Part shown: positions 3,218-64,000 of the stretch, one piece after another
Numbering within the stretch: position 1 is the stretch's first letter
How the letters are laid out: every line of letters starts with the position of its first letter
Assembly (NCBI GenBank): GCA_009746045.1
Contig: RPFO01000667.1
Location: 3,771,273 to 3,835,272 of the forward strand
DNA length: 64,000 nt
Origin: Mesostigma viride
Lineage: Eukaryota > Streptophyta > Mesostigmatophyceae > Mesostigmatales > Mesostigmataceae
Direction: 5' to 3'
Position numbers and translations under genes: made by a program
Notes under the pieces: model-generated
Database searches by the model: none
What the model saw: only the letters and a program-made list of their open reading frames with translations
What the model was told of the DNA's origin: nothing

Positions 3218-6200
3218 TTAATGGATATATAGAGGGTACCCCTCCCCCAGCAGCTGGTACGCGTAGATGGCGAAGTCAAAAGAATGATGTTCTGTGACAC
3301 CCTGCAACGCAGAAGACCGGGGGAATGCAAGGCAAAAGTGCGCAGGGAGTGCCATTGCAAAACGCCCTTGTGAGTATCCCGCAAACTTTTTTATATACAC
3401 GACGCCGAGCTTCTCTGCAAACAAATGCATCGGATGCATGAGACAAGCGGAATACAACCACCAAGGAGAATGGCTTGTGAAGCGGTAGCATCGCTTGCGT
3501 TCATGCAGCAGGCAAGCTAAGTCAGAAGCAAAAAGTTAATATAGCAGCAAAGTTCTTGCCTGCTGCCTGGCTTGCCTTGTATGTCTGATAGCACATTGAT
3601 TGCTATAGTTGTGTTAGATATGCACATCATATCCATGTTTGAAACCTGACTTCACCCAGACATGCCCAACATTTGATGGGTAAAAAAAGGAATCAGGGGA
3701 GCTCCGGTTAAAACCTTGCGGCAAGTTACAACAAGGGAGCTTTCTGAGCACCCAGTTAGCTAGCTGCATCTATGCCCGAAACGGATGATTGATTTCCCAG
3801 TCAGCCCGTGGTAGGCTTCATTGAAACCCGAAAATGCCAAGTGTGAAACCAACAATCCTCTTAGCGCTGACGTGACGTGCACAGAATGAATGGCAGAACA
3901 TGCCCATTGCCCATTATTGACAAAATATGAACAAGGTAATTACCTTATAGGAAATAGACTTGTCTTACCTATTGTAACGGCAGAGTACAATAAGCACTCC
4001 AGAAAAGTCACAGAAACACGACTACTAGCAATCCCAACCATAGTCATAACAAGCCAGGATTGCACCCTTTGGGTTGCAACACATCGTTTGTATAGATATA
4101 GCCCGGAATCCCTTTGCCACTCGGCTCTAAGGATCCGGATCGCGCATAAACTTAGGTCACCAGCGAGTGGTTATGCTGGATAGGTATTGGTCCAGATCCT
4201 TAGAGCTGAGCGGCAAAAGGATTCTAGGCAACATGTAAACTAACGCATATCCCTTATGACAGTTGTTTACCTGGTCAAGGTTTTAGGCTTTCTGTTTCCA
4301 GACCTCCTCTTTGTCAAAGTAACCACAGGGCCAGCTATGTTTACGCAACCGGACCCTGGCAAAGAAGTGATGGGGATAGTTAAGCTTACCCAACTTGATG
4401 AAATGAAAGCAATTGTAGGGTTACCTACGACCATGCACCTCAGCTTCATGGAATAAAAGATTAAATTTGAGGAAGGTGGGGTAAGTTATGTCCACGCACC
4501 TCCACTTTGTCAAAGTAATGATAGGGAGCCTTTGCCGTCTTCTTTGACACGTAGGCCTCAAAGCCGTAAAGGTGGACCTCGTTGCAAATCTGCGGGGCAC
4601 GCACGCATAGCATGCCACACCATGCCGTGCCATGTCATGCCATGCCGTGCCGTGCCGAACCATGCAAAAGTACGCAAGTATGAATTAGTAGCCCCAAAAC
4701 CGGAAAGGAGGCGGATGGCACGGTGCATTCAGTTGTGTGGATCCTTACTTGTGCATGCGCAAACTTGTCATTTGAAGGCAATTCTAAGAACTGTGGTTGT
4801 AGACGAACAAGCACATCCCAGCAGACAGAATGCCCGCGCACTCTACAGGCACTTTGTGGTACCTGTATTGATGAAAGACACGTGTACATACTAGTTTCAC
4901 ATACTAGTGCACTGTACCGATGATGGACTATACAGTGGGCACTGCGGGGTCACTATACATTCCCGTCGGTGTGTCGGTACAGTGAATCCATCCATTTCCA
5001 GTGCTCCAAACTAATTAGGAGAATTGTGGTATACGCATCGATAAATCACACAGTGCATTAATCCATTTCCAGTGCTCCATTATGCCTAAGTGCTCCATCT
5101 TCAATGCTCCGCGATACATTGTACTGCACGGCTCATAGTGTGCCATATTACAGCCAAAAATACCTAATAAAATCGGTTTCTCTGAATATATATAATTAAC
5201 GCATGCGGGAAAGATAGGGCCGCTATGCCTTGGCCTGCATGTGGGAGGCTGTCTGCGACATGGGCTGACTAATTCGATCTGTACAAAGGGTTTCATGTTC
5301 GCCTGGATTTTCCTTGGGTGACCCGGTTGTTTATAAGGGTCCGTGGCTATTAATTAGTGGTCCGAGAAAATTAATTGTAGGTTTTATACGACTTGCTTGC
5401 AAAGATTCTTGTTTGGTTGCACCAGCTGAGGTTAGCTGGGGACCTGTAGGGTCGGCTGGCTGCTTAACGAATCTTTGACTGATTTTGGCTCTTTAGTGAG
5501 TCGTGATTAATTATTGTATAGTGGATTCGGACCGGCCCAAGGGGTCGATGGGCGAGTTTTATGTTTGTCAGTCTTGGGAACCTTGTACAACTACCTGTAC
5601 GGTTAACGCACTAGCCTGGGGGTGCGTGGCCATGTTGTTTGTAGTGGCGTTTTCACCACTGTTCAGGCCGGCATGTGACGCGTGCCTGTGTTACTTAATT
5701 TAGGATGATGTCAGCTTGTGTGTCGGCGGACCATGCCTTAAGCAAGCTAGGCAGGCAATGATCCACGATTGTTTCTTTCCCCTCCCTCCCACTCTGAAGG
5801 CTTCTTGCTTCCGCGTGCGGATTGAGAAACCACTGTTAACTGCTGCATTTGTGGCAGGGTTCCACTTATTGTATTCAATTAAATGCTGGTCTTCTTGGGA
5901 GCTTAGTGATCGTAAAAGTAGTACACAAATTCCGCCGTCTGCGTATCCTGTACATTGGTGCCCTCGTGCTATGAGCAGCGGGCATGCCACACCCATCTGT
6001 GCTTACTTCACGTACTGTACTGTATCATGCCTAGATTTCACCGCCCCAACAGCCTGTGCCTCCGTATCCTTGGGCAAAATCTTCCTTAATCTATACTTCT
6101 ATGTATTCGGGTGAAGCCTGCTCACAATCTTGCACTAGTACCATAACCAAACACCCCCCCTTATGTACATCTGGTTTCACCCTGTACTGGAAGCCAATTG

Positions 6201-9200
6201 TAGCTGCATAAGAAGACAGGGTCGTGCAGTACCCGCTCGCAGTCTCTCTATCACTCGACGCTTAAAAATGATCAATAGCCACTGATAATTCTATTCCAGG
6301 CACCCACTGAACCTGCATAAGAAACAGGATCACCGCGTAGACCCACACACAGTCTGGTAGTATTACCAGTAGTATTACCAGTAGTGTTACCAGTAGTGTT
6401 ATCAGTAGTGCTACCAGTAGTGTTACCAGACGTATTACCAGTAGTATTACCAGTAGTGTTACCAGACGTATAACCAGACGTATTACCAGTAGTATTACCA
6501 GTAGTATTACCAGTAGTATTACTAGTAGTGTTACCAGTAGTGTTACCAGTAGTGTTACCAGTAGTGTTACCAGTAGTGTTACCAGTAGTATTACTAGTAG
6601 TGTTACCAGTAGTATTACTAGTAGTGTTACCAGTAGTATTACCAGACTCTATCACCAGACACTCTCACACTCTCACAGACCATTACGGGGGCACTCTCAT
6701 ACATTTTCATTGCTTGCATCCTGTACCAGGCCACCAAACATGCACCCGGGAGGGTATCACTGATCGCATTCAACCCGCTCTTAGTCGCTACATTGCCCTC
6801 GCTACCTTCTTTGATCCGGGAGTTCAACATCTACTCTCATCCTATTGCAGTCGCCCTCCGCACCTGCATAAGAAATAAGATCACGTTGAACCCGGTCATA
6901 GTCTCCAGTGCCTTAACCATGATCGCTAATCATTTCCATACTATACCAAGCCCATCCTGAGCCCATCCCACCTGCATAAGAAAAAGAATTGCATAGAACC
7001 CGCTCATCGGCTTGTCGTGGTACTTTGTTGCATGGCGCCGCTCCATCTCGTCCTTAAGCTGGTTCCACAGGTGGAAGCTGCGGGCGACAAAGCCGGGGTG
7101 GAGGAAGTGGATGCGGTTCCCCCCGCTGGCGTACTTCTCCACGAGGGGGGCAAACAGGTTCTGTGGGCGGCAGCCAGACCAGCCAACGACAAAACCGCAG
7201 GCTCGCCACCCACCGCAAATCCGCCACAACGCCAGCCGGACCCGCCAGGTGGCACACCAGAGGGCACCAAAGCGGCAGGCCACCGCAAGCCGCATCGCCA
7301 TGAGGGACAAATGGCACACTATGTGAGGGAATGAAGGGCGGTGTTGTGCAAGGGCGCGTACGTGGAACCGAGCCAGACAGGTAAGGGGACAAAAAGGTTC
7401 TTCCAGGTAAGGCGCGGGGGTGGGCGTGGCACACAACGGTGTCGACAGCGGCAGAGGGTAGTCTCTTTCAAGAAAGATGCCCCATGGCGCAAACCGCAGT
7501 GTGTTGTTCGGGCGGGAAACAAAGGCAGTGCAGCGGGCCAACCTAATCAAAACGTGCTATCAGCTGTATCAACTTGGTCATCTTGCTGCAAACAAACTGT
7601 GGCTGACAGGCTGTGGACAACCGCTCCCAACTTTAATGAAGTTAGATGTGAAAAAAATTATTCAATTAAACTTATTCATTTAATCGAAATTCATGATATG
7701 AGACCGGCCTTAGCCTTTCCTCCCGGTTCGCGGGAGTTTTTTACTAACCCAGATTCCTATTCACAAGATATACGTGAGTTTAATCTGAGACTGGCCTTTG
7801 CGCTCACCTTGCGGTTGGTGGGCGACGAGAACTCGAAGAAGAGCAGCGTGGAGGGCGGACTGCGGAAGCGGAACCCCTTGGACGCATGCAGGATGCGGCG
7901 CGCGTTCTCCCCTGTGCATGCGCACATGATGTGTTTATTGATAAAATAGCAGTAATGAACTGATGGTCAACAAAAGATCTGCTGGACGCAGGTGCTCCAC
8001 ACACATGCTGATAGTCGCACAGACGACATGTGCACCCACCACCCATGAAGATTCTCTCCTGCACGCGCGCAGTTGTGTGTATCGATTAATTAGTTTGTCC
8101 ACATCAGTTGAATTTACTCGCACAGAAGACACTCACGGTTGCAGAAATGACCCGTAGTCATAATGGACTCTCATGGTCGCAAGAGCCACTCCCTGTTGCA
8201 AACACCTCGGTGGCGGTGGCAGAACACAAATGACACTCCCAGTCGCAGGAAACGAGAGCACTACCGGTTGCAAAAGCCGGTCAAGCCACAAGAACTACTC
8301 ACAGATATAAACGCCACTCATGGGTGCGAACGCCACTAACGATTGCAAATGCCGCTCACCATTCCTGACCTTACAGTCCCAGGGAAAACTCACGAACGCA
8401 AAATCGCTAACATTTGCACAGCTGCAAATATTACTCACGGGTGGATGGCTCAAGCTAAGCTCCATGGGAGTGCCTTCCTACCATGAGAAACAAATTTATT
8501 ACAATGAGTGTGTGCAGGCTTTATAGTAGACCCTAGCCACTCTATCAAAATCATTGTACAAATCATTGTCATGGCCCGGCCATTTCACCACGCTGAGGCT
8601 CAGCACATGCCTAGCTTGTCCCTCAAACAGCAGCATGCATTAGCGGGTGGGAACTGCAAAACGGCCTCCATACGTCCACCGCACCACGCGGTACATTCGT
8701 GTGCACAAATATCCACAAAAATAGCTTTAGATATCTGACAGTGCATCCAAGGCGCTGCCCCCCCTTTTGGTACTTGAACTACCACAAAATGGGGGGGGCA
8801 CGTACCACACTGGGGCACTCGGCACTACCAGCACACACAGCCGACCCCTCTACTCATGTCCAACCGTCATCAAGCACCGTACATGGTGTAAGTGACGGAC
8901 GGTAGAGCGACGCTGCAGGCTTCAGATCGGCCCCCTTTGACCCCGCCGCAAGCACCTATAAGTGAGCAGATAGCTCAACAATTGCAAACGCTGCCACCAC
9001 AAAGATAGCTCACGGTTGCAAAACTGATTCATAGGCACAAAAATCACTCGCGGTCACAAAAGTCACTCATGCTTGCAGATGTCGCAGACGCAGGCATGCT
9101 GCAACTCACGGTCACAAACATCGCTGATGGTTGCCAAAGTTGCAATCAGATGGATCACTCGCGATCGCAAAAATCAAAAGCACAGCTGCAAACTGCATCT

Positions 9201-12200
9201 GCAAAGTGAAACAACTCACGGTTGCAGAAGTCAAACGTGGTCTTCCTGCCCACGTCGTCCTCGTAGGGGTGCACGGGCGCGTAGTTAAAACGCAGGACCG
9301 CCTCATGGGCATCGATGGCCTTCTGTTGAGGGTTGAGGGTTGAGGGTGGGGCCCATTCGCCCCGCAACCAGGCACAGGGGAACGAGGGAAAGAATATAGC
9401 GCAGACTGACGAGCCAGAAGAGGCAAGTAGGACCGGTCACAGGATAGTGAGAGGAAACAAATAGCCCATGGGGGGACCCAAGGCAGGTATGTGGGGCCAT
9501 GCAGAAACATAACTACAATCATGGAAATACAACAGACATACAGTAAACGATGAAATCCATACTATGCAGAATATTGGACGTACAATGAGCACACGGCCAT
9601 GGTGGGGATGGGCGGGGGTGGGGATGGGCGGGGGTGGGGATGGTTGGGGGTAGGGATGGTTGGGGGTAGGGATGGGCGGGTGTGGGGATGGGGATGTGGT
9701 GGACACCACCACCGGCGGATAATAAAGCGCCCTTAGGCCATCAGCGCACGCATGCAAGCATCAGCGCACACACGTGGGCATCCTAACGCCTTGGCGGAGC
9801 CATCTCTCAAGTGGCGCTGACGTTCCCTCCCTCCATGGCCCCCTTGATACCTCCTTGCCAGAACCCCCTTCGCAACTGCTTGCGAGCACGCGCGGTGCCC
9901 CCTTGCCATGCGAAATGTGGCCCGCTGGATGCCCCTGCCATTCATGAATCTACCCACCTGTTAGAAACATACCTTGTTGTTTGCAGTTGCCACAGTAGCC
10001 CCTTCTGGCAAACCACTTCATCCCTTTCACTGTTGCACATGCTTATTTCGCGGCACTTGCATGCTATAAATTACAAGCATGCTTTGCTCATAATGCAAAG
10101 AGTAAAAGACACAAAATCAAGTTGCCCCCTCAGATTCCTAAACCGCCAATGAAGGAGGAGATCCGGCTCAGGGGCGAATACTTAATTATTTATAAGTGCA
10201 TGCTTGCTTAGTTAAAGCGAATGCTTGCTTAATCAAAAGCGAATGGTTGCTTATTTACAAGCAAGTTCTCTCTTACTTAGATGGGAGAGCTTGCATAATT
10301 TAAAGCAAATGCTTAATTATTTAAAAGCAAGTGCTTGCTTCATTAAAGTGGATGCTTGCATAATTAAGAGCGAGTGCTTGCACAATTAAAAGCGAATGCT
10401 TGCTTAACTAAGAGCGAGTGCTTGTTAAATTGAAAGAAAGTGCTTGCTTACTTAAAGCGAGTGCTTGCTTACCTAAAAGCGAGTGCTTGCTTACCCCACT
10501 CTTGGAGCGCAGCCAGGTGCCAGAGTTCCCTACTTAAAGCGGGTGCTTGCTTACCCCACTCTTGGAGCGCAGCAAGCTGCCAGAGTTCCCCACGACCGCG
10601 CACGACGCAAAGTGCCGCCGAGGGTGGTCCGCCGCCGGGAGGTGCTTGAGGAACGCCCTGGATGGCGTGGAGGATATCCGTGGCGCATGGTGCAGAGGGA
10701 CATGCCACCCATGCACAATTCGCAGAGAGGCATGTCACCCGTGCACATATGACAACAAGGTGTGCCATCCATGCAGATATAGCATAGTGGCATGTCATCC
10801 ATGCACATAGGGCAGAGAGGTGTGCCATCTATTGCACACAGGGCAAAGAGTTGCAGTGACCATGAGGCCAAATGGTGTCAGATTGCGCATTGAATGTATA
10901 CTATCACAGTAACAATGATTAGTATGCTATGGGCAGGTTGACAACACCCATAGTAATCCCTAGGACATGCACGAGTACACCCATAGTGATCCCTAGAGCC
11001 CGCACGAGTACCCCTGCAGCTGTCCTACCCAGACATTCAATCCATTTAAGTTTTCCTCCATTCACAGGCAAGAGACGGATGGTTGGACGCAGAAATGCTC
11101 AGATACACTCACAATGACACACAGACGCAGAACACAGAAGCCCCCAAGCCCCCAAGCCCCCAAGCCCCCAAGCCCCCAAGCCCCCAAGCCCCCAAGCCCC
11201 CAAGCCCCCAAGCCCCCAAGCCCCCAAGCCCCCAAGCCCCCAAGCCCCCAAGCCCCCAAGCCCCCAAGCCCCCAAGCCCCCAAGCCCCCAAGCCCCCAAG
11301 CCCCCAAGCCCCCAAGCCCCCAAGCCCCCGAGCCCCCGAGCCCCCACGCCCCCACGCCCCCACGCCCCCACGCCCCCGCGCCCCCACGCCCCCACGCCCC
11401 CACGTCCCCAAACCCCCAATCAGATAAACAAGACCAGCAAACGACACAATAACACAAGCACGCGAACACAACATCCTTCAAGGGTATTCCCACGCTGCAA
11501 CATTTTCCTAATCCGAGTGTACTTTTGAAAATGGTAATGGATCACAGCGGAACGTCCCCAAACCCCTGGCTGACCTCTCCAGGGTCATCTGCGAGTGCGA
11601 CGCCCCTGTCATGCTGAGGAAGTGCAGGATGGGCTCCTGGCCGCTGCTGGTGTCCACGGATGCGGACGACAGCACAACGGGGTCCTCATCTGGAACGATG
11701 GCCTGGGCTACGAACCACGCGGCCGTCTCTGGACAAAGGGGGTGCAGGGAGACATGTAGGAGCAGGAGATGGGGGCGCGGAGACTCGTTGGATAAAGATC
11801 CTGTGGCAAAGGATGTGAGGGAAAAGGGTGCTCTTTCGATGCGAAAAACTGGCCAAGGTGGTACGGTTGTAATTGTGAGGAAGGGCGGGTCATGGTGGAT
11901 GAAATCTCAGTGCATGCGCCATCTGGGGGAGGCAAATGTAGGGCTACAAAATTGAAAGGAAGATAATTAAATTTATAGTTGGTCAAGGTAGATGGGCCAA
12001 ATGGTGACGAACCAAGGCACGAGAGTTAAGGTATCAGACTGGTTAATTATTGAGTGAGTAGGTGAGGGAATGGGTGACTGGGGGAAGGGGGAAGAAGAGA
12101 GGAAAGAAAGGAGGGAGGGGGCAGTGGGCTCGTCAGGCAGGCAAGGAGGTTGCGACAACGCAAGTAAAGGAGGGAGGGGGCAGTGGGCTCGTCAGGCAGG

Positions 12201-15200
12201 CAAGGAGGACACGACAACGGAAGGGAAGGAGGGAGGGGGCAGTGGACTCGTCAGGCAGGCAAGGAGGACGTGACAACGAAAGTGATTGAGGGAGGGAGCG
12301 AATCGTCGGGGGGGCTGCGGGAGGGATGACGGGTGGGCAGGCGGCTGGAAGGTCACCTGAGAACCGCAAAACTACCTGACACACATACAGAGACGGAGAG
12401 GGAGGGAGGGAGGGAGGGAGGGAGGGAGGGAGGGAGGGAGGGAGGGAGGGAGGAGGGAGGGAGGGAGGGAGGGAGGGAGGGAGGGAGGGAGGGAGGAGGG
12501 AGGGAGGGAGGGAGGGAGGAGGGAGGGAGGGAGGGAGGGAGGGAGGAGGAGGGAGGGAGGGAGGGAGGGAGGGAGGAGGGAGGGAGGGAGGGAGGGAGGG
12601 AGGGGGAGGAGGGAGGGAGGAGGGAGGGAGGGAGGGAGGGAGGGAGGGAGGGAGGGAGGGAGGGAGGGAGGAGGGAGGGAGGGAGGGAGGGAGGGAGGGA
12701 GGGAGGAGGAGGGAGGGAGGGAGGGAGGGAGGGAGGAGGGAGGGAGGAGGAGGGAGGGAGGGAGGGAGGGAGGAGGGAGGGAGGGAGGAGGAGGGAGGGA
12801 GGGAGGGAGGGAGGGAGGAGGGAGGGAGGGAGGGAGGAGGGAGGGAGGGAGGGAGGGAGGGAGGGAGGGAGGGAGGGAGGAGGAGGGAGGGAGGGAGGGA
12901 GGGAGGGAGGGAGGGAGGGAGGGAGGGAGGGAGGGAGGGAGGGAGGGAGGGAGGGAGGGAGGGAGGGAGGGAGGGAGGGAGGGAGGGAGGGAGGGAGGGA
13001 GGGAGGGAGGGAGGGAGGGAGGGCAACTGCCCTTGGCCAAGGCATGTCACCCCCGTTGCAAGTCAAGGTGACGTCGGCACAGCCTCTGCTGCCCATAGAA
13101 GATGGAAAGGCCCCGCTGCACGATCAGAATCCTGAATCCATTAATCCCAGGAGTAAAGATGAATTGAAAAACAGAATGCGGTAACATGTTACCGGAGTAG
13201 TGCAAATGGGCAGCATGCCGCAGTACCAGCCCACACAGTACTGTATGCCAGCTGGACTCACGCCGCTAACCACGGGGACATGTGCCTGTCCTCGCATTGC
13301 AACAAATGCATTCAGGGGCGAGAAACCACCTCGTGAGGCAAGCTACTATTTCACGTACTTGCACCGCCGATGGCACTGCTGCCACCTCCTCCCGTGCTGC
13401 CACCTGTCACGCTGCCGCCACTGGACGAGCCTACCGTGCCGCCCCGGACAGCACCCTGGGTGGGGCTGCCCCCGCCTGTCGCAGCCATGGCCAGGAGGCC
13501 TTGATTAGAGTCCCCAGCATGTGATGCGGATCCAGCAGGCGTGTCGTCCCATGCTGATGCAGGCGTGTCATCCCATGCTGATGCAGGCGTGTCGTCCCCT
13601 GATGCCGCCCCGGTCACAGCATGCAGCCACGCACGCACATGGGTGAATGGCTATCACACACGTGGAAAGGGCCTGGGCATCAAAAAAGTCTCCACGATGG
13701 TAATTCGGTTCATCTACCCGAAGACTGCGTCACATGAGCATCAGTCCTCAGTGGGATGGGAGCGCGATGAGATGGATGGATCTAGCTGTCTAGCTTCTAG
13801 TTACTGGGGGATTGGATGGCCATCCTTACCACGACAATGTGAGCGTGGGAGGGATACAGGTGGATGCGTGGACATGAACGGGGGAAAGGGTTGCAGACAG
13901 GATGGGGCGGTACTGTAGGGAAGACGGTCGCAGACAGGATGGGGCGTCACAGTAGGGAAGACGGTCGCAGACAGGATGGGGCGTTACAGTAGGGAAGACG
14001 GTCGAGAAAGGATGGGGCATTACAGTAGGGAAGACGGTCGAGAAAGGATGGGGCGTCACAGTAGGGAAGACGGTCGCAGACAGGATGGGGCTGTACAGTA
14101 GGGACGACGGTCGCAGACAGGATGGGGCGTGACAGTAGGGAAGACGGTTGCAGACAGGATGGGGCTGTACAGTAGGGAAGACGGTTGCAGACAGGATGGG
14201 GCGTGACAGTAGGGAAGACGGTTGCAGATAGGATGGGGCTGTACAATAGGGAAGACGGTCGCAGACAGGATGGGGCGTCACAGTAGGGACGACGGTCGCA
14301 GACAGGATGGGGCGTCACAGTAGGGAAGACGGTCGCAGACAGGATGGGGCGTTACAGTAGGGAAGACGGTCGCAGACAGGATGGGGCTGTACAGTAGGGA
14401 AGACGGTCGCAGATAGGAGGGGGCTGTACAGTAGGGAAGACGGTCGCAGACAGGATGGGGCTGTACAGTAGGGAAGACGGTCGCAGACAGGATGGGGCGT
14501 TACAGTAGGGAAGACGGTCGCAGATAGGATGGGGCTGTACAGTAGGGAAGACGGTCGCAGACAGGATGGGGCTGTACAGTAGGGACGACGGTCGCAGACA
14601 GGATGGGGCATTACAATAGGGAAGACGGTCGCAGACAGGATGGGGCTGTACAGTAGGGACGACGGTCGCAGACAGGATGGGGCGTCACAGTAGGGAAGAC
14701 GGTCGCAGACAGGATGGGGCGTCACAGTAGGGAAGACGGTCGCAGACAGGATGGGGCTGTACAGTAGGGAAGACGGTCGCAGACAGGATGGGGCGTTACA
14801 GTAGGGAAGACGGTCGCAGACAGGATGGGGCTGTACAGTAGGGAAGACGGTCGCAGACAGGATGGGGCTGTACAGTAGGGACGACGGTCGCAGACAGGAT
14901 GGGGCATTACAATAGGGAAGACGGTCGCAGACAGGATGGGGCTGTACAGTAGGGACGACGGTCGCAGACAGGATGGGGCATTACAATAGGGAAGACGGTC
15001 GCAGACAGGAGGGGGCTGTACAGTAGGGACGACGGTCGCAGACAGGATGGGGCGTCACAGTAGGGAAGACGGTCGCAGACAGGATGGGGCGTTACAGTAG
15101 GGAAGACGGTCGCAGACAGGATGGGGCGTTACAGTAGGGAAGACGGTCGCAGACAGGATGGGGCTGTACAGTAGGGAAGACGGTCGCAGATAGGAGGGGG

Positions 15201-16689
15201 CTGTACAGTAGGGAAGACGGTCGCAGACAGGATGGGGCGTCACAGTAGGGAAGACGGTCGCAGACAGGATGGGGCGTTACAATAGGGAAGACGGTCGCAG
15301 ACAGGATGGGGCGTCACAGTAGGGAAGACAGTCGCCGACAGGATGGGGCTGTACAGTAGGGAAGACGGTCGCAGACAGGATGGGGCGTTACAGTAGGGAA
15401 GACGGTCGCAGACAGGATGGGGCTGTACAGTAGGGAAGACGGTCGCAGATAGGAGGGGGCTGTACAGTAGGGAAGACGGTCGCAGACAGGATGGGGCGTC
15501 ACAGTAGGGAAGACGGTCGCAGACCGGATGAGGCGTCACAGTAGGGAAGACGGTCGCAGATAGGAGGGGGCTGTACAGTAGGGAAGACGGTCGCAGACAG
15601 GATGGGGCGTCACAGTAGGGAAGACGGTCGCAGATAGGAGGGGGCTGTACAGTAGGGAAGACGGTCGCAGACAGGATGGGGCGGTACAGTTGGGACGACG
15701 GTCGCAGACAGGATGGGGCATTACAATAGGGAAGACGGTCGCAGACAGGATGGGGCGTCACAATAGGGAAGACGGTCACAGACAGGAGGGGGCTGTACAA
15801 TAGGGAAGACATTGTCAGTGGGGGACGCATGACCGCACGCGAAAATGCCCGTGGGATATCACAAATTATGTCTGTGGCCTATTTGCAGCGCGTCCCTCTG
15901 CCATCTGTCACCTTTACGCGCATGCAGGGGCCCCTCACACACCATGATAGATACTACATCGCCATGCCTGGGAGGAAATAGGGGGTTGCTTTGCGAAGCC
16001 GTAGAGCATCATAACTGGAAGGGAATATTACGACTGGAAGGACATACCATCACTGGAAGGAAGTAGGGTGGTTAGGAGGGGATAGTACCATAGGGCGGGA
16101 GAAAAAGAAATTCTAGTACACTGTCAAAAGTATGTGGCTTTCCTAGTATTCTGAGGTGAGTTACCATCGACGAACCATGTAAGGTTGTCGGCACGTTGTA
16201 TACCGAATCAGGAAGACATGCTGCTTTGGGGAGTTCTGAGGGGGCCAAGGGAGCTTAGGATGGCAGTGGTGGTGGCAGGGCAAGGGGCTTCGCCATGCGC
16301 GGTCTCATGCTTTAAAGTCCGGACACCTCCCCTCCAGTGAACATGGACTGGGTTTGTCAGAGGGGGGGAAGGGAATCCCGTACATCCAGCAAGAGCCAGT
16401 GTAGTGCCCCGTTCCAAATAACGCTACTAGCGAGCGATGCTGCTTTTACCAAAACCTCTTTATGAGCAGCAACCACGTCCAGGAACGGAAAAACATCATT
16501 TGTCTTACCGGTTAAGCTGTTCGAAGATGTAGTCGGGCGCAGAGACGAAGGCTGCGAGGTTGGTGTGCTCGGCAGGTATAAGAGTGTGCGTAGTATGACA
16601 ACCACTAGGGCGACAGCGAGGAGTAGGCGCACGGACCGAAGCGGACTGGTCATCTCCTTAGACTGCTGACCATGAATGGAAGCCAGCAT
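3218..16689 (-). CDS. GT29 sialyltransferase-like type II membrane protein (multi-exon)
   Basis: This gene is predicted to encode a Golgi glycosyltransferase. Exons on the minus strand, with GT-AG borders and agreeing phases: 16689-16509, 11728-11575, 10657-10555, 9322-9220, 7911-7808 and 7160-6972, giving 278 codons in frame. Exon 1 has a signal anchor (residues about 20-38, [12 protein letters not shown]) and a Ser/Thr/Pro stem. Exons 3-5 form the sialyl L motif: CAVVGNSG (131-138), [11 protein letters not shown], then [10 protein letters not shown] and NRENARR. Exon 6 ends in the start of the S motif ([14 protein letters not shown]). The last exon starts at 3301 ([17 protein letters not shown], stop 3218) and could extend to 3412. 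The middle of the S motif is not resolved; 5968-5906 is a candidate exon. The family normally transfers sugar from CMP-sialic or Kdo-like donors; the substrate here is unknown. Intron 1 is 4.8 kb and full of satellites. It could be a damaged gene if no S-motif exon exists. Confidence 0.8.
4101..4228. repeat. Long inverted repeat (stem about 37 bp, loop about 53 bp)
   Basis: The left arm 4101-4138 and right arm 4192-4228 are near-complementary (GGATCC/GGATCT core, CTTTGCC against GGCAAAAG). It lies in the last GT29 intron. It could be a small foldback element or MITE; no target duplication was established. Confidence 0.6.
4230..6200. other. GT29 last intron, mostly unremarkable
   Basis: Apart from the candidate exon at 5906-5968 and an imperfect CATGC-type pentamer run at about 4608-4665, no gene or repeat array is recognised. 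Confidence 0.4.
5906..5968 (-). other. Candidate GT29 exon with degenerate 5' splice site
   Basis: After a pyrimidine-rich acceptor (GCTGCTCATAG), 21 codons read [25 protein letters not shown] sequence; the YYFYD string resembles the tyrosine-rich segment that lies between the S motif and the HxxxD/E motif in GT29 enzymes. The phase is 0 at both ends, matching exon 6 and the last exon. The next bases read TAAGCT, one base short of a GTAAGC donor, so the exon is either inactivated, misread or wrongly bounded. Confidence 0.35.
6200..6971 (-). repeat. Degenerate ~110-bp tandem repeat derived from GT29 exon 6 end
   Basis: The exon 6 end and its 5' splice site (minus strand, TTTCTTATGCAG then GTG) recur as decayed copies at about 6862, 6316 and 6206, with a weaker partial copy near 6755. 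Several still spell ILFLMQ or a close relative before CAG. Spacing is about 107-109 bp, with the middle replaced by a 12-bp minisatellite. See the findings on junction-seeded repeats. Confidence 0.6.
6354..6650. repeat. 12-bp minisatellite, about 25 units
   Basis: Units alternate between AGTATTACCAGT and AGTGTTACCAGT. Read on the minus strand, every unit contains CTGGTAA, which resembles a 5' splice site. The open Asn-Thr-Thr-Gly translation is a by-product of the period being a multiple of three. It lies within GT29 intron 6. Confidence 0.85.
8119..9219 (-). repeat. Degenerate ~27-bp minisatellite derived from GT29 exon 4/intron 4 junction
   Basis: Two blocks (about 8119-8440 and 8975-9219) consist of diverged units reading, on the minus strand, TTTTGCAACCGTGAGTG. 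That is the exon 4 end (TTCTGCAACC) plus its donor GTGAGT at 9219. The blocks occupy intron 4 and start directly at the splice site. The stretch between them (8450-8970) shows no clear feature. Confidence 0.65.
9600..9696. repeat. G-rich 16-18-bp minisatellite
   Basis: Repeats of GGGGATGGGCGGGGGTG and the variant GGGATGGTTGGGGGTA, about six units, in GT29 intron 3. Confidence 0.7.
10180..10554 (-). repeat. Minisatellite derived from GT29 exon 3 splice donor
   Basis: On the minus strand, intron 3 opens with GTAAGCAAGCAC followed by CGCTTTAAG. It then repeats this as about 14 diverged units of 22-28 bp (GTAAGCAAGCACTCGCTTT type) down to about 10180. A 60-bp duplication at its start also copies the last 30-35 bases of exon 3 and the donor, with the second donor at about 10494. 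Confidence 0.7.
10690..10855. repeat. 29-bp degenerate tandem repeat, about five units
   Basis: Units of the type GGCATGTCACCCATGCACAT plus GGCAGAGA lie just upstream of the exon 3 acceptor of the GT29 gene (minus strand), inside intron 2. Confidence 0.65.
11137..11419. repeat. 8-bp (AAGCCCCC)n minisatellite, about 35 units
   Basis: A pure array of AAGCCCCC, grading into CGAGCCCC and CACGCCCC variants after 11328. The minus strand carries regularly spaced G5 runs, so G-quadruplex formation is likely. It lies in GT29 intron 2. The long open frames across it (PSPQAPKP and GLGAWGLG) are artefacts. Confidence 0.9.
12122..12298. repeat. 59-bp tandem repeat, three units
   Basis: Units start with CAGTGGGCTCGTCAGGCAGG at 12122, 12181 and 12240 and are about 90% alike. 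They lie in GT29 intron 1 beside the (GGGA)n tract. Confidence 0.85.
12395..13022. repeat. (GGGA)n polypurine tract with GGAGGGA interruptions
   Basis: About 628 bases of almost pure purine on the plus strand. The 3-bp interruptions are spread irregularly through the left two thirds and are absent from the last 130 bases. The tract could form triplex or G-quadruplex structures. It is in GT29 intron 1. The Pro-Pro-Ser-Leu and Gly-Arg-Glu-Gly frames are not genes. Confidence 0.95.
13530..13605. repeat. 24-bp tandem repeat, about three units
   Basis: GCGTGTCGTCCCATGCTGAT-type units at 13537, 13561 and 13585 (the last partial), in GT29 intron 1. A neighbouring Gly/Ser/Thr-rich minus-strand frame (13351-13638) could be a skipped exon, but nothing supports it. 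Confidence 0.75.
13723..13815 (-). mobile_element. LINE-A 3'-end fragment (decayed, no tail)
   Basis: The sequence GACTGCGTCACATGAGCATC, then TCCTCAGTGGGA, then CTAGTTACTGGGG matches the minus-strand form of the LINE-A 3' end seen at 24195-24300. The (TTAA)n tail is absent. Confidence 0.6.
13880..15811. repeat. 37-bp satellite array, about 52 units
   Basis: The unit is GGGAAGACGGTCGCAGACAG followed by GATGGGGC and a variable CGTCACAGTA, CGTTACAGTA, TGTACAGTA or ATTACAATA end. Variant patterns recur at 259 bp (7 units) and 296 bp (8 units), so there is higher-order structure. On the minus strand all three frames are largely open, which gives 37-residue repeats. It sits in GT29 intron 1. Confidence 0.95.
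15812..16508 (-). other. GT29 intron 1, 5' part
   Basis: Three small GGAAGGNNATANCATC-like repeats lie at about 16015-16060. A second acceptor with a good pyrimidine tract at 16348 would join exon 1 in frame to a 46-codon exon ending at 16208. That gives a 106-residue alternative product, which may be chance or an alternative terminal exon. Confidence 0.35.
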
Positions 16690-20800: not shown

Positions 20801-23109
20801 GCTAGAAAAAATTGGGTTGTCTTGCAAAGCTGTAGGGTCGGCTTGGTACGCAAGGTCTATGCAGTCCCTGGGATGTACCCCCTGCAGGTTTGGGATGTAC
20901 ACCAGCTTCTTCACGCGTGCTATCCGAATCCCTTTCGGTGCCGGAGGTCTGGCACACCCTGGGGCCCGGCTGCCTGGGTTGACCCACAAAAATGGCACCT
21001 GTGCGCTATCAAATACGACACCTGTGCGCTATCATTAGATCATGCTGCATCCTGTGCTAGTCTGGCTATCGATATCCTGTTCAATGAGCAAGTCAAGTGT
21101 CAAGTTGGAGGGGCTTCATTATCATTAGGTAGACCATGGTGGCTGCGATGGATGCCTCAGTCAGTGCCTTGTTGGTCCCGCTGGTCCACTGGCATGCCAC
21201 AAAGCAGGGCAAGGCTGCCAGGGCAGTGCAGTCGCCAGAGACAAATGGGGACAGACATGCATGGTAGAGGCTGATGGGGGAGGGCTGGGTGGGGGAGATG
21301 CGGATGCGTTCGTGGTAGTGCAGGGTGACGTCGCATGGGTTCGTCAGTTGTAGTGGCTCGCATGTCCAATAGATTTCTGGACTGTGGCACCCATCAGGAT
21401 TCTCTTCGCTGACAGTGGCTGGGGATCCACTGCTTTGCAACTGGCAAACCCTACCTCAATACGGCTACGGGGGCTGTGAAGGGGCCTGGCTTGCGATATT
21501 GTTGTGGTGGGATCCCACTGCCCTCACTATGGTTACTGTGATGGATTACGGCAGGGATGAGTGGCTTCCCACAACTAAGGGGCCTGGCTTGCGATAATGT
21601 TTTGGTGGGATCCCGGGTCCTCTGGTAGGACTTTCCTGGCTCTGTGAGTCGACCGCCACAGGCTCTCCCTTATTCTCGCCTTCTTATCACCTCTCGTCTT
21701 CGCCTCTCCTTTGATTATCCGCACGCCCGGGGCGCTGTGCGCCCTGTTGTTCGAAGTGGGTAATGTCTCATGGTACATGGTGGGTGCCATTGCATGGGTT
21801 CACCCTGTTCTTCCGGCATGCTGCGCTTGTGGTGCGGCGTGATCACCCGTTGCTGGTGCTGGCGGACGGAGTCTCACCTCCCTGGTCCATGGATGCTGTC
21901 TTCTGAAACATGGTTTGTGCCCCCTTGTCCTCACCAGGTGCTGATGCTGGCCGACGGGAGCGCCCAATTGGCCAAGGCGATGGGGGTGGAGTTGGACCTG
22001 GAAGAGAGAGGTGAGGTCTCCCGGTGCATGGTTACTCAGAGCATGTGCTGCTGCTATAGCTCCAACATACTGTCTTGACGCTTGTTGTGGGGTGGACTAG
22101 GAGGAGGGAGATGGGTGATGGTGAGGGGATGTGGTGGACAAGAGGTGGTGGAGCGGTGCAATGACCAAGGGTTGGGAGGTTGGGTTGACGACGGACAAGC
22201 GACGATGGACGCGGGTTGAGTAATGACCAAGCGGTTTGGGATGGCAGAACAGGGGGTGTAATTGTGTTAAGACCAAGGGGGGGTGACGGACGATTGAGTC
22301 GCTGCATGGTGGCTGGTACCTGCTGCTATATGGTTACGTCGCCCTATGCATGGTCGCTGGTGCCTGCTGTTGTAAGTGTAGCTGTTCAGTGCATACTGTG
22401 GGATATTGCTGGGTGGAGCGAGGTGAGTGATGCTCGCTCGATTAATGCCTTCCTGCATGCATTGGGGCCATTGAGTGGCTACACGTGACGCCATCTGCCC
22501 TACTTACAGTTTGAACTTTTATGGCCTGGACATAATGACGGCAAAGCGTGCGTGGCGAGTATCAGACAGCACCAATTAGGAATTAGCCAGCAAAGGCCAT
22601 TGATACCATTTTATGAAACCACGTCATTGGCAATTATCATGGTAGCATGCTGCCCCTACTGTGGTCCCTTGGCGTCACCCTGTCTGGATGCCATGGAGCA
22701 CGAAATCCTGGGTCCCCACCAGACTGACCTATCACACAAAGCATCCAAAACCTTCTTCCTGGGTGTAAACTATGGCATGTGCTCGTGCATGACTGGTAGC
22801 TGCTGCGCTGTTGCATCATTTCTACGATAGACCTGTCCCTCAACTGCTGACTGCCTGTCACTCAATTGCTACATGGACAACATGTCATGTTGTCCATGTA
22901 AATGTTGTCCATGCATAATTAAGGTTAAGATGGTATCGTTTCATTCTCTGCTGTGGACGTATGCTCATGCGCATGCTGTCGCAGGTCTCGGGCTGCGCTC
23001 GCGTCGCTATTCGATGATACTTGAAGATGGCATCGTGAGCACTCTTTTCTTGGAGGAAGGAGGCAAATTCGAGAAGAGTGGGGCACCGGATATCCTCAGC
23101 GCACTGTGA
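17885..23109 (+). CDS. Type II peroxiredoxin (PRX5/PrxII, cytosolic type)
   Basis: A thiol peroxidase that reduces hydrogen peroxide and alkyl hydroperoxides with thioredoxin or glutaredoxin as donor. Six exons with GT-AG borders and matching phases: 17885-17908, 18125-18224, 18350-18430, 20570-20652, 21938-22010, 22985-23109. They give 486 bases, 161 residues, the usual length of plant cytosolic PrxII. The start MTIDVGDK is short and there is no transit peptide; an in-frame stop at 17804 limits upstream extension. The active site PGAFTPTC places the peroxidatic Cys at 50 (Thr47 also present), the likely resolving Cys is 75 (VACVAVND), and the conserved Arg before Tyr (RSRRYS) is about 128. 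The C-terminus [10 protein letters not shown] is typical. Introns of 125 bp to 2.1 kb hold a MITE and small repeats. A 39-bp satellite begins in the last codons. Confidence 0.97.
18506..18585. repeat. (TTCCR)n pentanucleotide repeat
   Basis: TTCCATTCCGTTCCGTTCCA-type repeats, in peroxiredoxin intron 3. Confidence 0.8.
18590..18870. repeat. Degenerate ~50-bp tandem repeat
   Basis: The phrase CCTTTGATGTGGCCCTTATT with CGTTCC and GAGGACGTGTT recurs about five times with drift, in peroxiredoxin intron 3. Confidence 0.65.
19243..19694. mobile_element. MITE with 34-bp terminal inverted repeats
   Basis: Positions 19243-19276 and 19661-19694 are perfect reverse complements, beginning TACCGTAGTGGTCAAAATCA. 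If the outer TA is a target duplication, the element is 448 bp (19245-19692), which would fit a Tc1/mariner-like non-autonomous transposon. It contains several GGGTCGCAAA boxes and a perfect 12-bp hairpin at 19501-19530. It carries no transposase. It sits in peroxiredoxin intron 3. Confidence 0.8.
20653..21937. other. Peroxiredoxin intron 4, no gene seen
   Basis: It contains a diverged duplication, GGGGCCTGGCTTGCGATA at about 21481 and 21578, each followed by GGTGGGATCCC. Nothing else is recognised. Confidence 0.5.
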
Positions 23110-23950
23110 TTCTTATCATGAAAAGCACGTGACGCAAGCGCGCTATGATTCTTATCATGAAAAGCGCGTGACGCAAGCGCGCTATGATTCTTATCATGAA
23201 AAGCGCGTGACGCAAGGCGCGCTATGATTCTTATCATGAAAAGCGCGTGACGCAAGCGCGCTATGATTCTTATCATGAAAAGCACGTGACGCAAGCGCGC
23301 TATGATTCTTATAATGAAAAGCGCGTGACGCAAGCGCACTGTGATTCTTATCATGAAAAGCACGTGACGCAAGCGCACTATGATTCTTATCATGAAAAGC
23401 GCGTGACGCAAGGCGCGCTATGATTCTTATCATGAAAAGCGCGTGACGCAAGCGCGCTATGATTCTTATCATGAAAAGCACGTGACGCAAGCGCGCTATG
23501 ATTCTTATCATGAAAAGCACGTGACGCAAGCGCACTGTGATTCTTATCATGAAAAGCACGTGACGCAAGCGCACTATGATTCTTATCATGAAAAGCACGT
23601 GACGCAAGCGCGCTGTGATTCTTATCATGAAAAGCACGTGACGCAAGCGCGCTGTGATTCTTATCATGAAAAGCACGTGACGCAAGGCGCGCTATGATTC
23701 TTATCATGAAAAGCACGTGACGCAAGCGCGCTATGATTCTTATCATGAAAAGCACGTGACGCAAGCGCGCTATGATTCTTGTCATGAAAAGCACGTGACG
23801 CAAGCGCGCTATGATTCTTATCATGAAAAGCACGTGACGCAAGCGCACTGTGATTCTTATCATGAAAAGCACGTGACGCAAGCGCGCTATGATTCTTGTC
23901 ATGAAAAGCACGTGACGCAAGCGCGCTGTGATTCTTATCATGAAAAGTAC
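23095..23950. repeat. 39-bp satellite, about 22 units, starting in the peroxiredoxin stop codon
   Basis: The unit GCGCACTGTGATTCTTATCA plus TGAAAAGCACGTGACGCAA starts with the last Ser-Ala-Leu-stop codons of the peroxiredoxin gene. The units are 80-95% alike, and a few are 40 bp (extra G), which shifts the frame. Each unit carries CACGTGAC (or CGCGTGAC), an E-box/G-box-like site. Since 39 is a multiple of three, long open frames arise on both strands but have no family match. Confidence 0.92.
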
Positions 23951-28735: not shown

Positions 28736-29376
<641 letters not shown>

Positions 29377-42159: not shown

Positions 42160-42178
42160 TGTATTCATAAAAATCCCG
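42160..42178 (+). promoter_or_regulatory. Primer-binding position of the Copia-related element
   Basis: TGTATTCATAAAAATCCCG follows the LTR directly. It does not look like the usual Copia site (complement of initiator Met tRNA), but its first 12 bases are exactly complementary to 47274-47285, just after ORF2. Confidence 0.45.
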
Positions 42179-47247: not shown

Positions 47248-47625
47248 GCCACACAGGGTTACGGCTCGGGCGCTTTATGAATACAGCCATAACTCACCCT
47301 GTGTTGCTAGCATTCACGAATATCATGGTGGTAGTTTTTTTTGCTTGTCCTGACCATACCCTAGCCACGTTGGACGGTGCCTTGGGCCCGTCGGCGGGTC
47401 ACTGGTCCTAATAAATGGGTCACCTTTTGTCTGGTGGCATAGTTGTTTTTTTCTCGATACTTATTACATCACTATTCATGTGTGATCACAAGGGCGCGGG
47501 TCGATACCGTGGTGATTTTGACGGCCTTGAGGCCCCCTTGAGTTCCCTACCTTAGAGGGTTTTGTATGGTCTGCATTTGATGTAATTATTTTGATAATTA
47601 ATCAAAGAACAAAAGAGTATGTCGG

Positions 47626-47969
47626 AGTTGAGTAACTCTAGAGCCCTAGGATCTGGCTCTAAGTTCCCCATGTCCGTCCGCACGCCTTCCGCTAGCGTCC
47701 GCTAAGCCGCCGGCTATAATCCGGCGGTCCGATGCGGCGACCGGTCTAAGGGCGGCGCCTAGGGCCGGCGCCACCTAGGCCCCAGTCCGGGGCCTTATCC
47801 GGGTCAGTACGGACGGCTAGCTTGTCCCACGGTTACGGCTAACCGGATAGGGTTTGCTGGCTAAGACATAAACCAGTGGTGGGCCAGCTCCGACAGCAGT
47901 TCTCCGTGTTCACCTTATCCCAAGCTCAACGTGACCGACCGCCATAGCTGAGCCGGTCGGGCTTTAACT
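47626..47969 (+). repeat. 3' LTR (344 bp)
   Basis: Preceded by a purine-rich AAAGAACAAAAGAG at 47604-47617. Its TATA hairpin and ends match the 5' LTR, with one base missing at GATGCGGCGACC. Confidence 0.9.
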
Positions 47970-48091
47970 GCTTGTGCATGGCCGACGTAGATGACCGGCG
48001 CCCCCTTCCAGTACACGTACCGGCTTTCCCGCCGTTGTCTGCCGGAGATGCATGGAGGTTATAGGTCGGCCATAGCTCCCGTCGCCGTTGT

Positions 48092-59439: not shown

Positions 59440-60780
<1,341 letters not shown>

Positions 60781-61147: not shown

Positions 61148-61159
61148 AGATTATATATT

Positions 61160-61948: not shown

Positions 61949-64000
61949 TCACCACCACCGGTCATGACCTTTGTCCTCTCCCCCTTGCCCCCGTAGCCGT
62001 TGCCGCAACCCCTCCCCTTCCGCCTCCTCCCCCCCCACCTCGCCCTTCTGCCCCGTGGGAGCGTTATCCCGCCTCGCACCCCTCTTTCCGCCGTCACCCC
62101 CCTTTAATGACTCCAGGGTGGCCAAGATGCTCCTCAGGGCGGCCGGGTCCGGTGGTATATCTGCCGGCACCGACAGCGTGACAGGTTGCGGTATCTTGCT
62201 AAAGTTGATCCCCAGATCTTCCATCGCGTCCTTGATGACATAAAACAGGGCCATCTTGTGTGTGGATAGCGGGCCCGAGTCCTGGAAGGTGCCCCTGTGG
62301 CTGAACCACAGCTCGTACGTCGCTTTGTGGTTATCCTCCACCCCCGTGAGGACCATGCGGAAGATGGGCCCGAACCACGTCTGGTTCACCGCCATGAAGG
62401 CCTCGACCTTGTCCTGGAGCGTACCGATCGCCTCGATCGACGTGGACCACGGGAGGCAGAAGGTCACGCACTCCCACAGGTCCTTGCTGCGCCGGTGGTT
62501 GACGATGTTCTTGGTCGACAGCAACATGGTGGGCATCGTGACCAGTCGGCCGTCCGTGCCGTGCATCGTGCAGGACCAGATGCCGATTGCCGCCACCTGG
62601 GCGCGGGGGTGGTGACATTGTTTTCGCAATATGGTGATGCAATGCATGAAAATGCAGGAAAGTCAGCTCGATGAAAAAACTGTGCTTGTGCACTTAGGGG
62701 ACCGCTCCCAATATCCTCTTCCCACTATTCCTTTTTATTTTGGGGGGGGAAACCCCCGACGTGCAAAGTGGAGTGGCCAAACCTAGAGGCTGCTGCAGGA
62801 AGCATGCGCATCAACATGTGAGGTGTCTTCAGCCCCCCAAATCCCTCAACGTGAGCAATGTTGCCATCAGCTGCTATGGACTGGATATAGTACAGCCACG
62901 AGGCGCTGTCCAATGAGACATTCGTAGCCATGCACCGGGGGCGCTGTGGCCATATCTGGCACGGCAGGTCCCCCTGCCCTGTCTGCTGTGCACCCCAGAT
63001 ACTTGCACGCCACTGGGTATGCACGGTAGTATTGCTGAGGAATGAAGGGAAAAAAAAAGAGAACAACCCTCGAATGCTTGTACCCAGTCCCGCCCAGAAA
63101 AACAGTGTTTTAACCAGGCAGCCAGACTAGGAATCGGACTATCGGTGATCGAATGTACATGTATGTGCATAATTGCCACCACACGAAGCGGCGAATCACT
63201 CAGCACGCGACATGGGCTTCCCACGGAAGACAGGCACAGGCACCCACATTCCAAAGCAGTGCTTTCCCACTCACACAGTAACACTTGTTCACTCATGCAG
63301 CAGTGCTTGCCATGGCGGTCAAGCACAGGCATCTAACTCACAAAGCGACGATGACACCCAACTGCAACCTAGTACTTCCCACCCATTCAAACTAGGATGC
63401 TTTTCTATCCACCAAAGGGCTCGCCATGGCAGGCAAGCACAGGCATTCCAAGTTATGACAAGATGATAGCCAGCTCACAAACCAATGCCCGCCTGCTCAT
63501 AAAGCCGCACCTGCATCTAACTGACAAAGCAGTGCTAGCACACTCACACAAGAACGCTTACAAAGCAAGCCGTGCCCAGTCGTATCAGGTCAAACCTTTC
63601 CATTACAGACTAATGCTGTCACCCTCTCGCAAAAAAGTGGCACGTACAGTATCCTACTATGCTGGTTGCCCACTCGCAGAGTATTGCCCACTCGCAGAGT
63701 AGTGCTTGCCTATTAATTAAAGCGTAATGCTGCCACCCACTCAAAACGTAGCGCGATTCCTACAGAGCAACTCACAGAGTAGCGCTTGCTCATTCCTACA
63801 GCAACTCGCCTATTGCTACATTAGCTCACAACATAGTGATTGGCATGAGAAACACTATGCTACCGTACCTCAACAATTCAGTGCTTGCCTATTTCTACAG
63901 TGACTCACGATATAGTGCTTATCCTCAATCTCCACGCGATCGCCCACGTCAAACGGGTGCACCAAGAACAGGAACAGGAGCGCCTCAAACAGCATGCGCA
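61949..64000 (-). CDS. MscS-like mechanosensitive channel, 3' part (runs off window)
   Basis: A membrane channel that opens under lateral tension and lets ions and osmolytes pass. Two exons on the minus strand are visible: 64000-63909 (frame RMLFEALLFLFLVHPFDVGD, then RVEIEDKHYI; the HPFDVGDRV stretch is the MscS pore-end/beta-domain signature) and 62596-61949 (VAAIGIWSCTMHGTDGRLVT, MPTMLLSTKNIVN, then the alpha-beta C-terminal domain and a Gly/Glu/Arg-rich tail). GT-AG borders and phase 0 agree on both sides. The N-terminal transmembrane helices lie beyond 64000. The overall pattern resembles plant and algal MSL10-type proteins. The 1.3-kb intron is largely a junction-derived repeat. Confidence 0.9.
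63140..63908 (-). repeat. Degenerate minisatellite derived from MscS exon/intron junction
   Basis: On the minus strand the exon ends AAGCACTATATC then GTGAGTCACTGTAG. The intron continues with units AAGCACTGAATTGTTGAGG, AATCACTATGTTGTGAGC, AAGCGCTACTCTGTGAGT, AAGCACTACTCTGCGAGTGG and so on at 20-55-base spacing, decaying toward 63140. Confidence 0.65.

What the first reader, a model, noticed from the sequence alone, without database searches (positions are those of the whole stretch)
3218..64000. Intronic minisatellites built from the upstream exon end plus 5' splice site, in four introns of two genes
In GT29 introns 3, 4 and 6 and in the MscS intron, the first intronic bases and the last 6-15 exon bases form the unit of a tandem repeat that fills part of the intron. 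The four units are unrelated in sequence, so this is a shared process rather than a shared repeat. The arrays run from the splice site inward and become more diverged with distance. This suggests that introns lengthen by repeated duplication at the donor junction, leaving many decoy 5' splice sites. I know of no standard name for it.
Basis: partly seen in the sequence, partly recalled or inferred. Interest (0 to 1): 0.88.

Follow-up and report, generated by a model that had tools for sequence, protein, structure and literature searches.

The report
Splice-junction minisatellites ("mirages") common in introns
In this large, probably algal genome many introns contain degenerate tandem copies of their own splice junction, each with some 20 bases of the neighbouring exon; such "mirages" were known from a few amphioxus genes and one human gene, and here they occur in about one intron in five of the sample examined.

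Summary
Of 114 homology-defined kinesin introns from 28 other loci, 28 hold an own-donor copy at >=20/28 matches (shuffled pairing: mean 0.42, maximum 5) and 13 an own-acceptor copy (0.21, 3). DEAD helicases agree (3 and 3 of 28); HSP70 has few (1 and 1 of 17). The closest known kind is the amphioxus "mirage", so it has a name. Most likely mechanism: frequent tandem duplication in introns; those spanning a junction survive because the outermost splice site still serves. Most arrays are interior, yet donors carry two to three times more than junction-blind models predict. "More diverged with distance" is not general, and donor-specific lengthening is only partly supported. Added here: a measured frequency, acceptor cases, and, in one paralogue pair, homogenisation of an exon end with its intronic copies. 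No RNA data were available.

The parts
10487..10590 (-). GT29 intron 4 donor (last exon base 10555) with a 60-bp tandem duplication, 36 nt exon + 24 nt intron; second donor copy has its last exon-like base at 10495
   Evidence: TRF 10476-10590, period 60, 94% match; exon reach 36; copy 30/32; use of the second donor would meet a stop
10201..10493 (-). 22-bp array (13.5 copies, 72% match) abutting the duplicated donor of GT29 intron 4, first units beginning GTAAGC
   Evidence: TRF, sequence
9004..9220 (-). GT29 intron 5 donor (last exon base 9220) and proximal copies of the junction, exon-like ends at 9163, 9129, 9110, 9071, 9052, 9014
   Evidence: positions at the loose cut-off 14/22
8127..8405 (-). 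GT29 intron 5 distal copies of the same junction, exon-like ends at 8394, 8341, 8303, 8266, 8194, 8137 (8137 is the best, 18/22)
   Evidence: loose cut-off 14/22; 8137 also 21/28
6202..6991 (-). GT29 intron 7 donor (last exon base 6972) and copies with exon-like ends at 6864, 6313 and 6204; a 12-bp minisatellite (6357-6645) lies between
4296..4519 (-). GT29 intron 8 donor (last exon base 4500) and copies with exon-like ends at 4439 (18/28) and 4304 (21/28)
63766..63928 (-). MscS intron donor (last exon base 63909) and degenerate copies with exon-like ends at 63830 and 63776
21842..21869 (+). acceptor-junction copy in peroxiredoxin intron 3, 88 nt upstream of the true acceptor (first exon base 21938), 23/28
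   Evidence: 18/24
23098..23947 (+). 39-bp array (21.7 copies) that starts three codons before the peroxiredoxin stop codon (TGA at 23107-23109): the same layout at a stop codon instead of a splice site
   Evidence: TRF, sequence, translation of the last exon ending ...DILSAL*, Redoxin match

Best explanation
These are 'mirages': short DNA segments (22-83 bp in the clear arrays) that span an exon/intron border are tandemly duplicated, as intron interiors are duplicated in this genome. The copy falls inside the intron. The protein is unchanged as long as the outermost site (first donor, last acceptor) goes on being used, so such duplications persist while most duplications inside coding exons are removed. 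Unequal exchange or gene conversion then multiplies and homogenises the copies, the exon end included, and substitutions, indels and later intron growth degrade and spread them. Shown here: the copies, their own-intron specificity, both borders, the frequency in the sample, homogenisation in one paralogue pair, and that use of the later donors would almost always break the frame. Inferred: the duplication mechanism (slippage or unequal exchange), removal of exonic duplications by selection, and use of the outermost site. The donor border carries about 2-3 times more than a junction-blind process predicts; the cause of that excess is open.
For: Own-donor copies >=20/28 in 28/114 kinesin introns (permuted mean 0.42, max 5) and own-acceptor in 13/114 (0.21, max 3), in 18 and 12 of 28 loci. 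The 29 held-out introns included there gave 5 donors (0.50 expected) and 2 acceptors (0.33) at >=18/28. DEAD: donors 3/28 (0.02 expected), acceptors 3/28 (0.01) at >=20/28. Antisense at >=17/24: 0/85 for each border. Clear arrays run across the border: L010 70 bp, two units identical; L024 83 bp x3.5; L026 34 bp x5; L014 22 bp x7.2; L028 acceptor 59 bp x2.4. Concerted evolution: at 8 sites both units of L010 agree and differ from both units of its paralogue L011, 0 sites group by slot; 1 of the 8 is exonic. Of 44 donor copies at >=20/28 (39 kinesin, 5 window) 32 keep GT, 29 keep GT and score at or above the 10th percentile of real donors, only 4 would leave an open frame. Sampled interior 20-mers are repeated too: 171/912 in kinesin, 29/224 in DEAD. 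Junction copies are few where interior repeats are few: HSP70 interior 9/136, 1 donor and 1 acceptor of 17 at >=20/28. The peroxiredoxin stop-codon array has the same layout.
Against: Donor-spanning arrays exceed junction-blind placement (10 versus 3.24, P 0.001), and donor copies exceed a junction-blind simulation (observed 0.263 at interior 0.188; simulated 0.106 at interior 0.166, the highest rate tried); acceptor copies exceed it slightly (0.114 versus 0.076), though acceptor-spanning arrays do not exceed placement (1 versus 3.23). So a purely blind process does not account for all. In 20 of 36 copies the likeness runs 8-44 nt into the exon but only 4-17 nt into the intron, not expected of a plain tandem copy without faster intron turnover or continued homogenisation. 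In the held-out set the acceptor count (2/29) equals its antisense control (2/29) at >=18/28. HSP70 gives little. No transcripts were available, so use of the outermost site rests on protein homology. Concerted evolution rests on one paralogue pair.
Confidence: 0.85

Rival explanations
1. A donor-anchored duplication process (for example tied to co-transcriptional R-loops, pausing or spliceosome-bound nascent RNA) makes copies at 5' splice sites and is a main way in which introns lengthen.
For: Donor excess of about 2-3 fold over blind models; exon reach short, 10-36 nt, with copies of [-20,0) in 30/114 introns but of [-40,-20) in only 3/114.
Against: Most arrays are interior (79 of 92; 10 span a donor); array midpoints show no 5' bias (51 of 97 in the first half); acceptors are copied too; in the short-period arrays the exon part is bounded by the unit length anyway; introns with copies are only modestly longer.
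Confidence: 0.25
2. The copies are kept by selection as decoy or alternative splice sites.
For: 32 of 44 copies keep GT and 29 of 44 also score within the range of real donors.
Against: Only 4 of 44 would leave an open frame; GT is not kept better than the rest (7 of 11 copies detected by exon bases alone); units are unrelated between introns.
Confidence: 0.07
3. The introns or repeats are insertions of introner-like mobile elements whose target-site duplications give the exon-end copies.
For: Single copies at about 50-250 nt could look like nested target-site duplications.
Against: No junction sequence shared between introns (own 28/114 versus permuted 0.42); exon end and intron end are not alike (5.53 versus 5.67 of 20 for unrelated pairs); the clear arrays are tandem with one unit. 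A direct search for a shared element body between introns was not made.
Confidence: 0.04
4. Introns were created by tandem duplication of AG|GT-containing exon segments (Rogers-type intron gain) and the copies are relics of that.
For: A known process (PMC4974935, abstract; PMC3087553, passages).
Against: The predicted likeness of exon end to intron end (5.53 versus 5.67 of 20) and of intron start to next exon start (5.29 versus 5.13) is absent in 85 introns; the first donor copy lies at a median 15% of the intron length (30 introns).
Confidence: 0.05
5. Artefact of wrong gene models or assembly.
For: No RNA evidence; one fetched contig stretch, L029, is a near-identical duplicate of L030.
Against: Exon ends come from conserved protein segments in three families; using the later GT29 donor copies tested (5 at >=20/28) would meet stops or shift the frame; antisense control 0/85 at >=17/24; most copies are degenerate, not exact duplicates.
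Confidence: 0.04

Closest known systems
Amphioxus "mirages" (Adh, globin, troponin C, PGBD5 genes)
   Same: Minisatellite-like tandem duplications spanning 5' or 3' exon/intron borders; units from 10-72 bp (Adh3) to 150-160 bp (globin); many copies carry AG/GT signals; concerted evolution inside arrays (PMC3087553, abstract and passages; PMC3902484, one passage).
   Different: Reported there gene by gene in a chordate; here counted over 172 introns (13 window, 159 elsewhere) of a probable alga, with a donor excess and many copies below the 81-100% unit identity given for one globin gene. There the cluster-boundary unit escapes homogenisation; in the one pair seen here the unit at the exon takes part. 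RT-PCR supports normal splicing there; not tested here.
[quoted passage not shown]
   Same: Tandem duplication across an exon/intron border; in 844ins68 the distal site is strongly favoured and the chromosomes are non-pathogenic (PMC2630376, passages; PMC1395315, table passage).
   Different: Polymorphisms of one human gene, not a frequent feature of introns.
[quoted passage not shown]
   Same: Duplication across an intron/exon border (PMC4974935, abstract only).
   Different: There a new intron arises; here no intron-gain signature.

Membership tests
Mirage (amphioxus) | Tandem repeat unit spans an exon/intron border | tested here: met
   of 92 TRF arrays in 104 introns, 10 span a donor and 1 an acceptor; GT_i4 60-bp unit
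Mirage (amphioxus) | Both 5' and 3' borders can be duplicated | tested here: met
   28/114 donors, 13/114 acceptors at >=20/28
Mirage (amphioxus) | Units specific to their own intron (my criterion, not stated in the passages seen) | tested here: met
   own 24/85; same gene 2/318, other genes 40/6822 pairs, >=17/24
Mirage (amphioxus) | Concerted evolution inside arrays | tested here: met
   one paralogue pair only: 8 sites group by locus, 0 by slot
Mirage (amphioxus) | Length instability between alleles | tested here: inconclusive
   the one candidate pair (L029/L030) is 99.955% identical over 4434 aligned bases, 0 mismatches and 2 gaps, probably an assembly duplicate
Mirage (amphioxus) | Regular splicing is not disturbed | not testable with these tools
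   no transcripts; protein homology supports the outermost donor
Introner-like element | Related sequence in many introns | tested here: not met
   junction sequences only: permuted pairing 0.42 of 114; intron bodies were not compared all against all
Tandem-duplication intron gain (AGGT model) | Exon end repeated at the intron's 3' end | tested here: not met
   5.53 versus 5.67 of 20, 85 introns

The most novel reading that the evidence does not exclude
5' splice sites in this lineage are hotspots of a junction-directed duplication process, linked to transcription or splicing, that keeps re-copying the last ~20-30 exon bases with the donor into the intron and exchanges sequence with the exon itself, so that coding exon ends evolve in concert with an intronic reservoir.
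Probability: 0.2. Interest if true: 0.82.

Novelty: new member of a known kind. Interest (0 to 1): 0.55.

Why it matters
It turns a curiosity of a few amphioxus genes into a common, countable feature of another eukaryote. It offers natural experiments on how a spliceosome picks the outermost of several near-identical sites, and suggests that exon ends can take part in minisatellite turnover. It also warns gene finders and splice-variant callers that strong decoy sites, complete with exon context, sit inside such introns.

Tried and rejected
Haplotype comparison for array instability: L029 and L030 are nearly identical (99.955% over 4434 aligned bases, 2 gaps), so it says nothing. Intron-gain signature: absent in 85 introns. 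Introner or mobile-element origin: no shared junction sequence; intron bodies not compared. 5' bias of arrays in introns: none (51 of 97 midpoints in the first half). Decay with distance: ten arrays with 3 or more copies gave rho from -0.97 to +0.93 (6 negative, 3 positive, 1 zero); pooled donor rho -0.26 (P 0.013, 87 copies), acceptor -0.14 (P 0.51, 25 copies). A first simulation with a hand-made list of units up to 120 bp gave too flat a profile; one with measured interior periods fits the fall-off better but under-predicts the donor peak. HSP70 was a weak replicate and is reported as such. A first junction test on unrefined models (58 introns) gave 13 donors (0.30 expected) and 8 acceptors (0.44) at >=17/24, with 2 and 1 for exon-interior controls. 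An early random-placement test (9 donors versus 4.59, P 0.031; 1 acceptor versus 4.55) was replaced by one that limits exon reach to less than one period. Rows dropped before counts (short introns or weak flanks): kinesin 131 introns called, 85 kept; held-out 37 called, 29 kept; HSP70 32 called, 17 kept with a slightly looser filter, from 11 of 15 loci; DEAD 40 called, 28 kept. The 13 window introns include one of 125 bp, under the 150-bp limit used elsewhere. L029 was left out as a duplicate. No introns of the many other GT29 matches were examined. Actin (PF00022) was asked once (not completed) and not repeated.
Full report
What was examined. The window is G000:C2133:3771273-3835272 of an unnamed 440-Mb, 2243-contig genome. 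I mapped splice borders of three window genes by protein homology: GT29 sialyltransferase-like (minus strand), MscS-like channel (minus) and a peroxiredoxin (plus).

Window result. With a 24-mer from -12 to +12 around each donor, 4 of 12 introns hold own copies at >=16/24, against 0.00-0.05 expected per intron from dinucleotide shuffles. With a 28-mer (-20..+8) and 13 introns, 6 of 13 have a donor copy at >=18/28 (two of them, MscS and Px_i4, at exactly 18) and 1 of 13 an acceptor copy (23/28); the chance rates against unrelated introns are 12/1105 and 17/1105. At >=20/28 the window gives 4 donors and 1 acceptor of 13.

Sample beyond the window. Kinesin motor exons were located by PF00225 (129 matches). 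Twenty loci were fetched and introns called with a spliced protein aligner of my own, first with a human kinesin, then with a profile built from the loci themselves: 131 introns called, 85 kept. Eight more loci served as held-out set (37 called, 29 kept). Together 114 introns in 28 loci. Own-donor copies: 35/114 at >=18/28, 28/114 at >=20/28 and 21/114 at >=22/28, against permuted means of 2.40, 0.42 and 0.25 (maxima of 5000 permutations 9, 5 and 3). Own-acceptor copies: 16, 13 and 7 of 114 against 1.71, 0.21 and 0.07 (maxima 8, 3 and 2). In the held-out set alone: 5/29 donors (0.50 expected) and 2/29 acceptors (0.33) at >=18/28, with 0 and 2 of 29 in antisense, so there the acceptor signal at this loose cut-off is not above its antisense control.

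Other families. DEAD helicases (9 loci, 28 introns): donors 6/28 at >=18 (0.44 expected) and 3/28 at >=20 (0.02); acceptors 5/28 (0.52) and 3/28 (0.01); antisense 0. HSP70 (15 loci fetched, 17 introns kept): donors 1/17 at both cut-offs, acceptors 2/17 at >=18 and 1/17 at >=20; antisense 0. HSP70 introns are also poorer in interior repeats (9/136 sampled 20-mers) than kinesin (171/912) and DEAD introns (29/224). Over all sampled introns the >=20/28 counts are 32/159 donors and 17/159 acceptors, or 36/172 and 18/172 with the window.

Controls. In the first 85 introns, the last 24 exon bases are found (>=17/24) in the own intron in 24/85, in antisense in 0/85, in other introns of the same gene in 2/318 pairs and in other genes in 40/6822; the first 24 bases of the next exon in 12/85, antisense 0/85. 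At >=16/24 antisense gives 2/85 and 1/85. Exon interiors are hardly copied: the 20-mer profile is 3/114 at -40, 30/114 at -20, 14/114 at 0 and 13-18/114 further into the intron; on the acceptor side 13/114 at 0 and 1/113 at +40.

Anatomy. Clear arrays run straight across the border: L010 and L011 70-bp units, L024 83 bp, L026 34 bp, L014 22 bp, L019 58 bp; L028 has a 59-bp acceptor unit that reaches 21 bases into the exon and holds the polypyrimidine tract, with older copies up to 811 bases upstream. Exon reach in the ten donor-spanning arrays is 10-36 nt. Of 36 copies extended from the junction, 20 keep likeness for 8-44 nt into the exon but only 4-17 nt into the intron.

Concerted evolution. 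The paralogues L010 and L011 carry the same 70-bp array. At 8 sites both units of one paralogue agree and differ from both units of the other; 0 sites group by position in the array. One of these sites is in the exon, seven in the intron. Units are 70/70 identical inside L010 and 66/70 inside L011, but 61/70 and 59/70 between. So exon end and intronic copy appear to be homogenised. This rests on one pair; separate duplications at the same breakpoints in each paralogue would give the same picture but seem less likely.

Which site is used. Of 44 donor copies at >=20/28, 32 keep GT (5 of the other 12 are GC copies of a GC donor as called), 29 keep GT and score at or above the 10th percentile of real donors, and only 4 would give an open frame if used. 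The homology-supported donor is the outermost one. No transcripts were seen.

Is the donor special? Of 92 tandem arrays (period >=12) in 104 introns (91 kinesin and 13 window), 10 span a donor against 3.24 expected under junction-blind placement (P 0.001; two of the ten are the paralogue pair L010/L011), and 1 spans an acceptor against 3.23. A simple simulation of blind tandem duplication with measured interior periods gives 0.106 for the donor [-20,0) window and 0.076 for the acceptor [0,20) window when interior repetition is 0.166, the highest rate tried; observed are 0.263, 0.114 and 0.188. So there is a donor excess of roughly two to three fold, but most arrays are interior and midpoints are not biased to the 5' half. 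The excess may reflect a process at donors, the slower decay of the constrained exon half, or homogenisation with the exon.

A parallel case at a stop codon. The 39-bp, 21.7-copy array at 23098-23947 begins three codons before the peroxiredoxin stop codon, so the first unit carries the stop and the rest lies 3' of it. It fits the view that arrays may overlap a coding edge wherever the outermost signal stays in use.

Known kinds. Amphioxus 'mirages' match in layout, both borders, unit size and concerted evolution (PMC3087553, abstract and section passages; PMC3902484, one passage; the original Adh paper was not seen). Human CBS offers a donor case (31-bp VNTR, exon 13-intron 13; [quoted passage not shown] PMC2630376, passages; that passage calls the sites donors, while a paper it cites is on 3' splice site choice). 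Intron gain by tandem duplication (PMC4974935, abstract) predicts a likeness that is absent here. My searches of the held library (for only 20 of 79 and 8 of 43 papers were listed) showed no title or abstract start on mirages from an alga or as a measured genome-wide feature; that library lacks most subscription papers.

Verdict. Real, common in the sample, and of a known but little-studied kind; the donor excess and the exon-intron homogenisation are the parts worth following.

Noticed in passing
genome-wide; window GT29 gene about 3220-16680 (-): The GT29 (sialyltransferase) family looks greatly expanded in this genome: 152 exon-level matches, among them long matches in single open frames that look intronless. 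A scale-bearing green alga would fit (PMC3491373 on Bathycoccus, search listing only), but this is inference.
   Followed up: partly
window 23098-23947 (+): A 39-bp minisatellite begins three codons before the peroxiredoxin stop codon, so that the stop lies in the first unit.
   Followed up: partly
window 13535-13598 (-): In-frame 24-bp repeat (DDTPASAW units) in a putative GT29 exon 2.
   Followed up: no
window 41810-47970 (+): Copia-like retrotransposon with a long gag-pol-like stretch between two similar terminal stretches (about 41815-42160 and 47630-47970), seen by eye.
   Followed up: no
window 560-2420 (+) and 24180-26000 (-): Non-LTR reverse-transcriptase-like pieces next to (ATTA)n tracts; the same CACGTGAGCATAAGTCCTCA-type end recurs at several places in the window (by eye).
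   Followed up: no
window 12398-13023 and 28734-29376: Very long tetranucleotide tracts (GAGG, GGGA, TGCG, TGGT).
   Followed up: no
window 37603-37926: 163-bp tandem duplication, 100% match in TRF.
   Followed up: no
L029 (C622) and L030 (C2): Small contig C622 repeats part of C2 at 99.955% identity over 4434 aligned bases, probably an unpurged duplicate in the assembly.
   Followed up: partly
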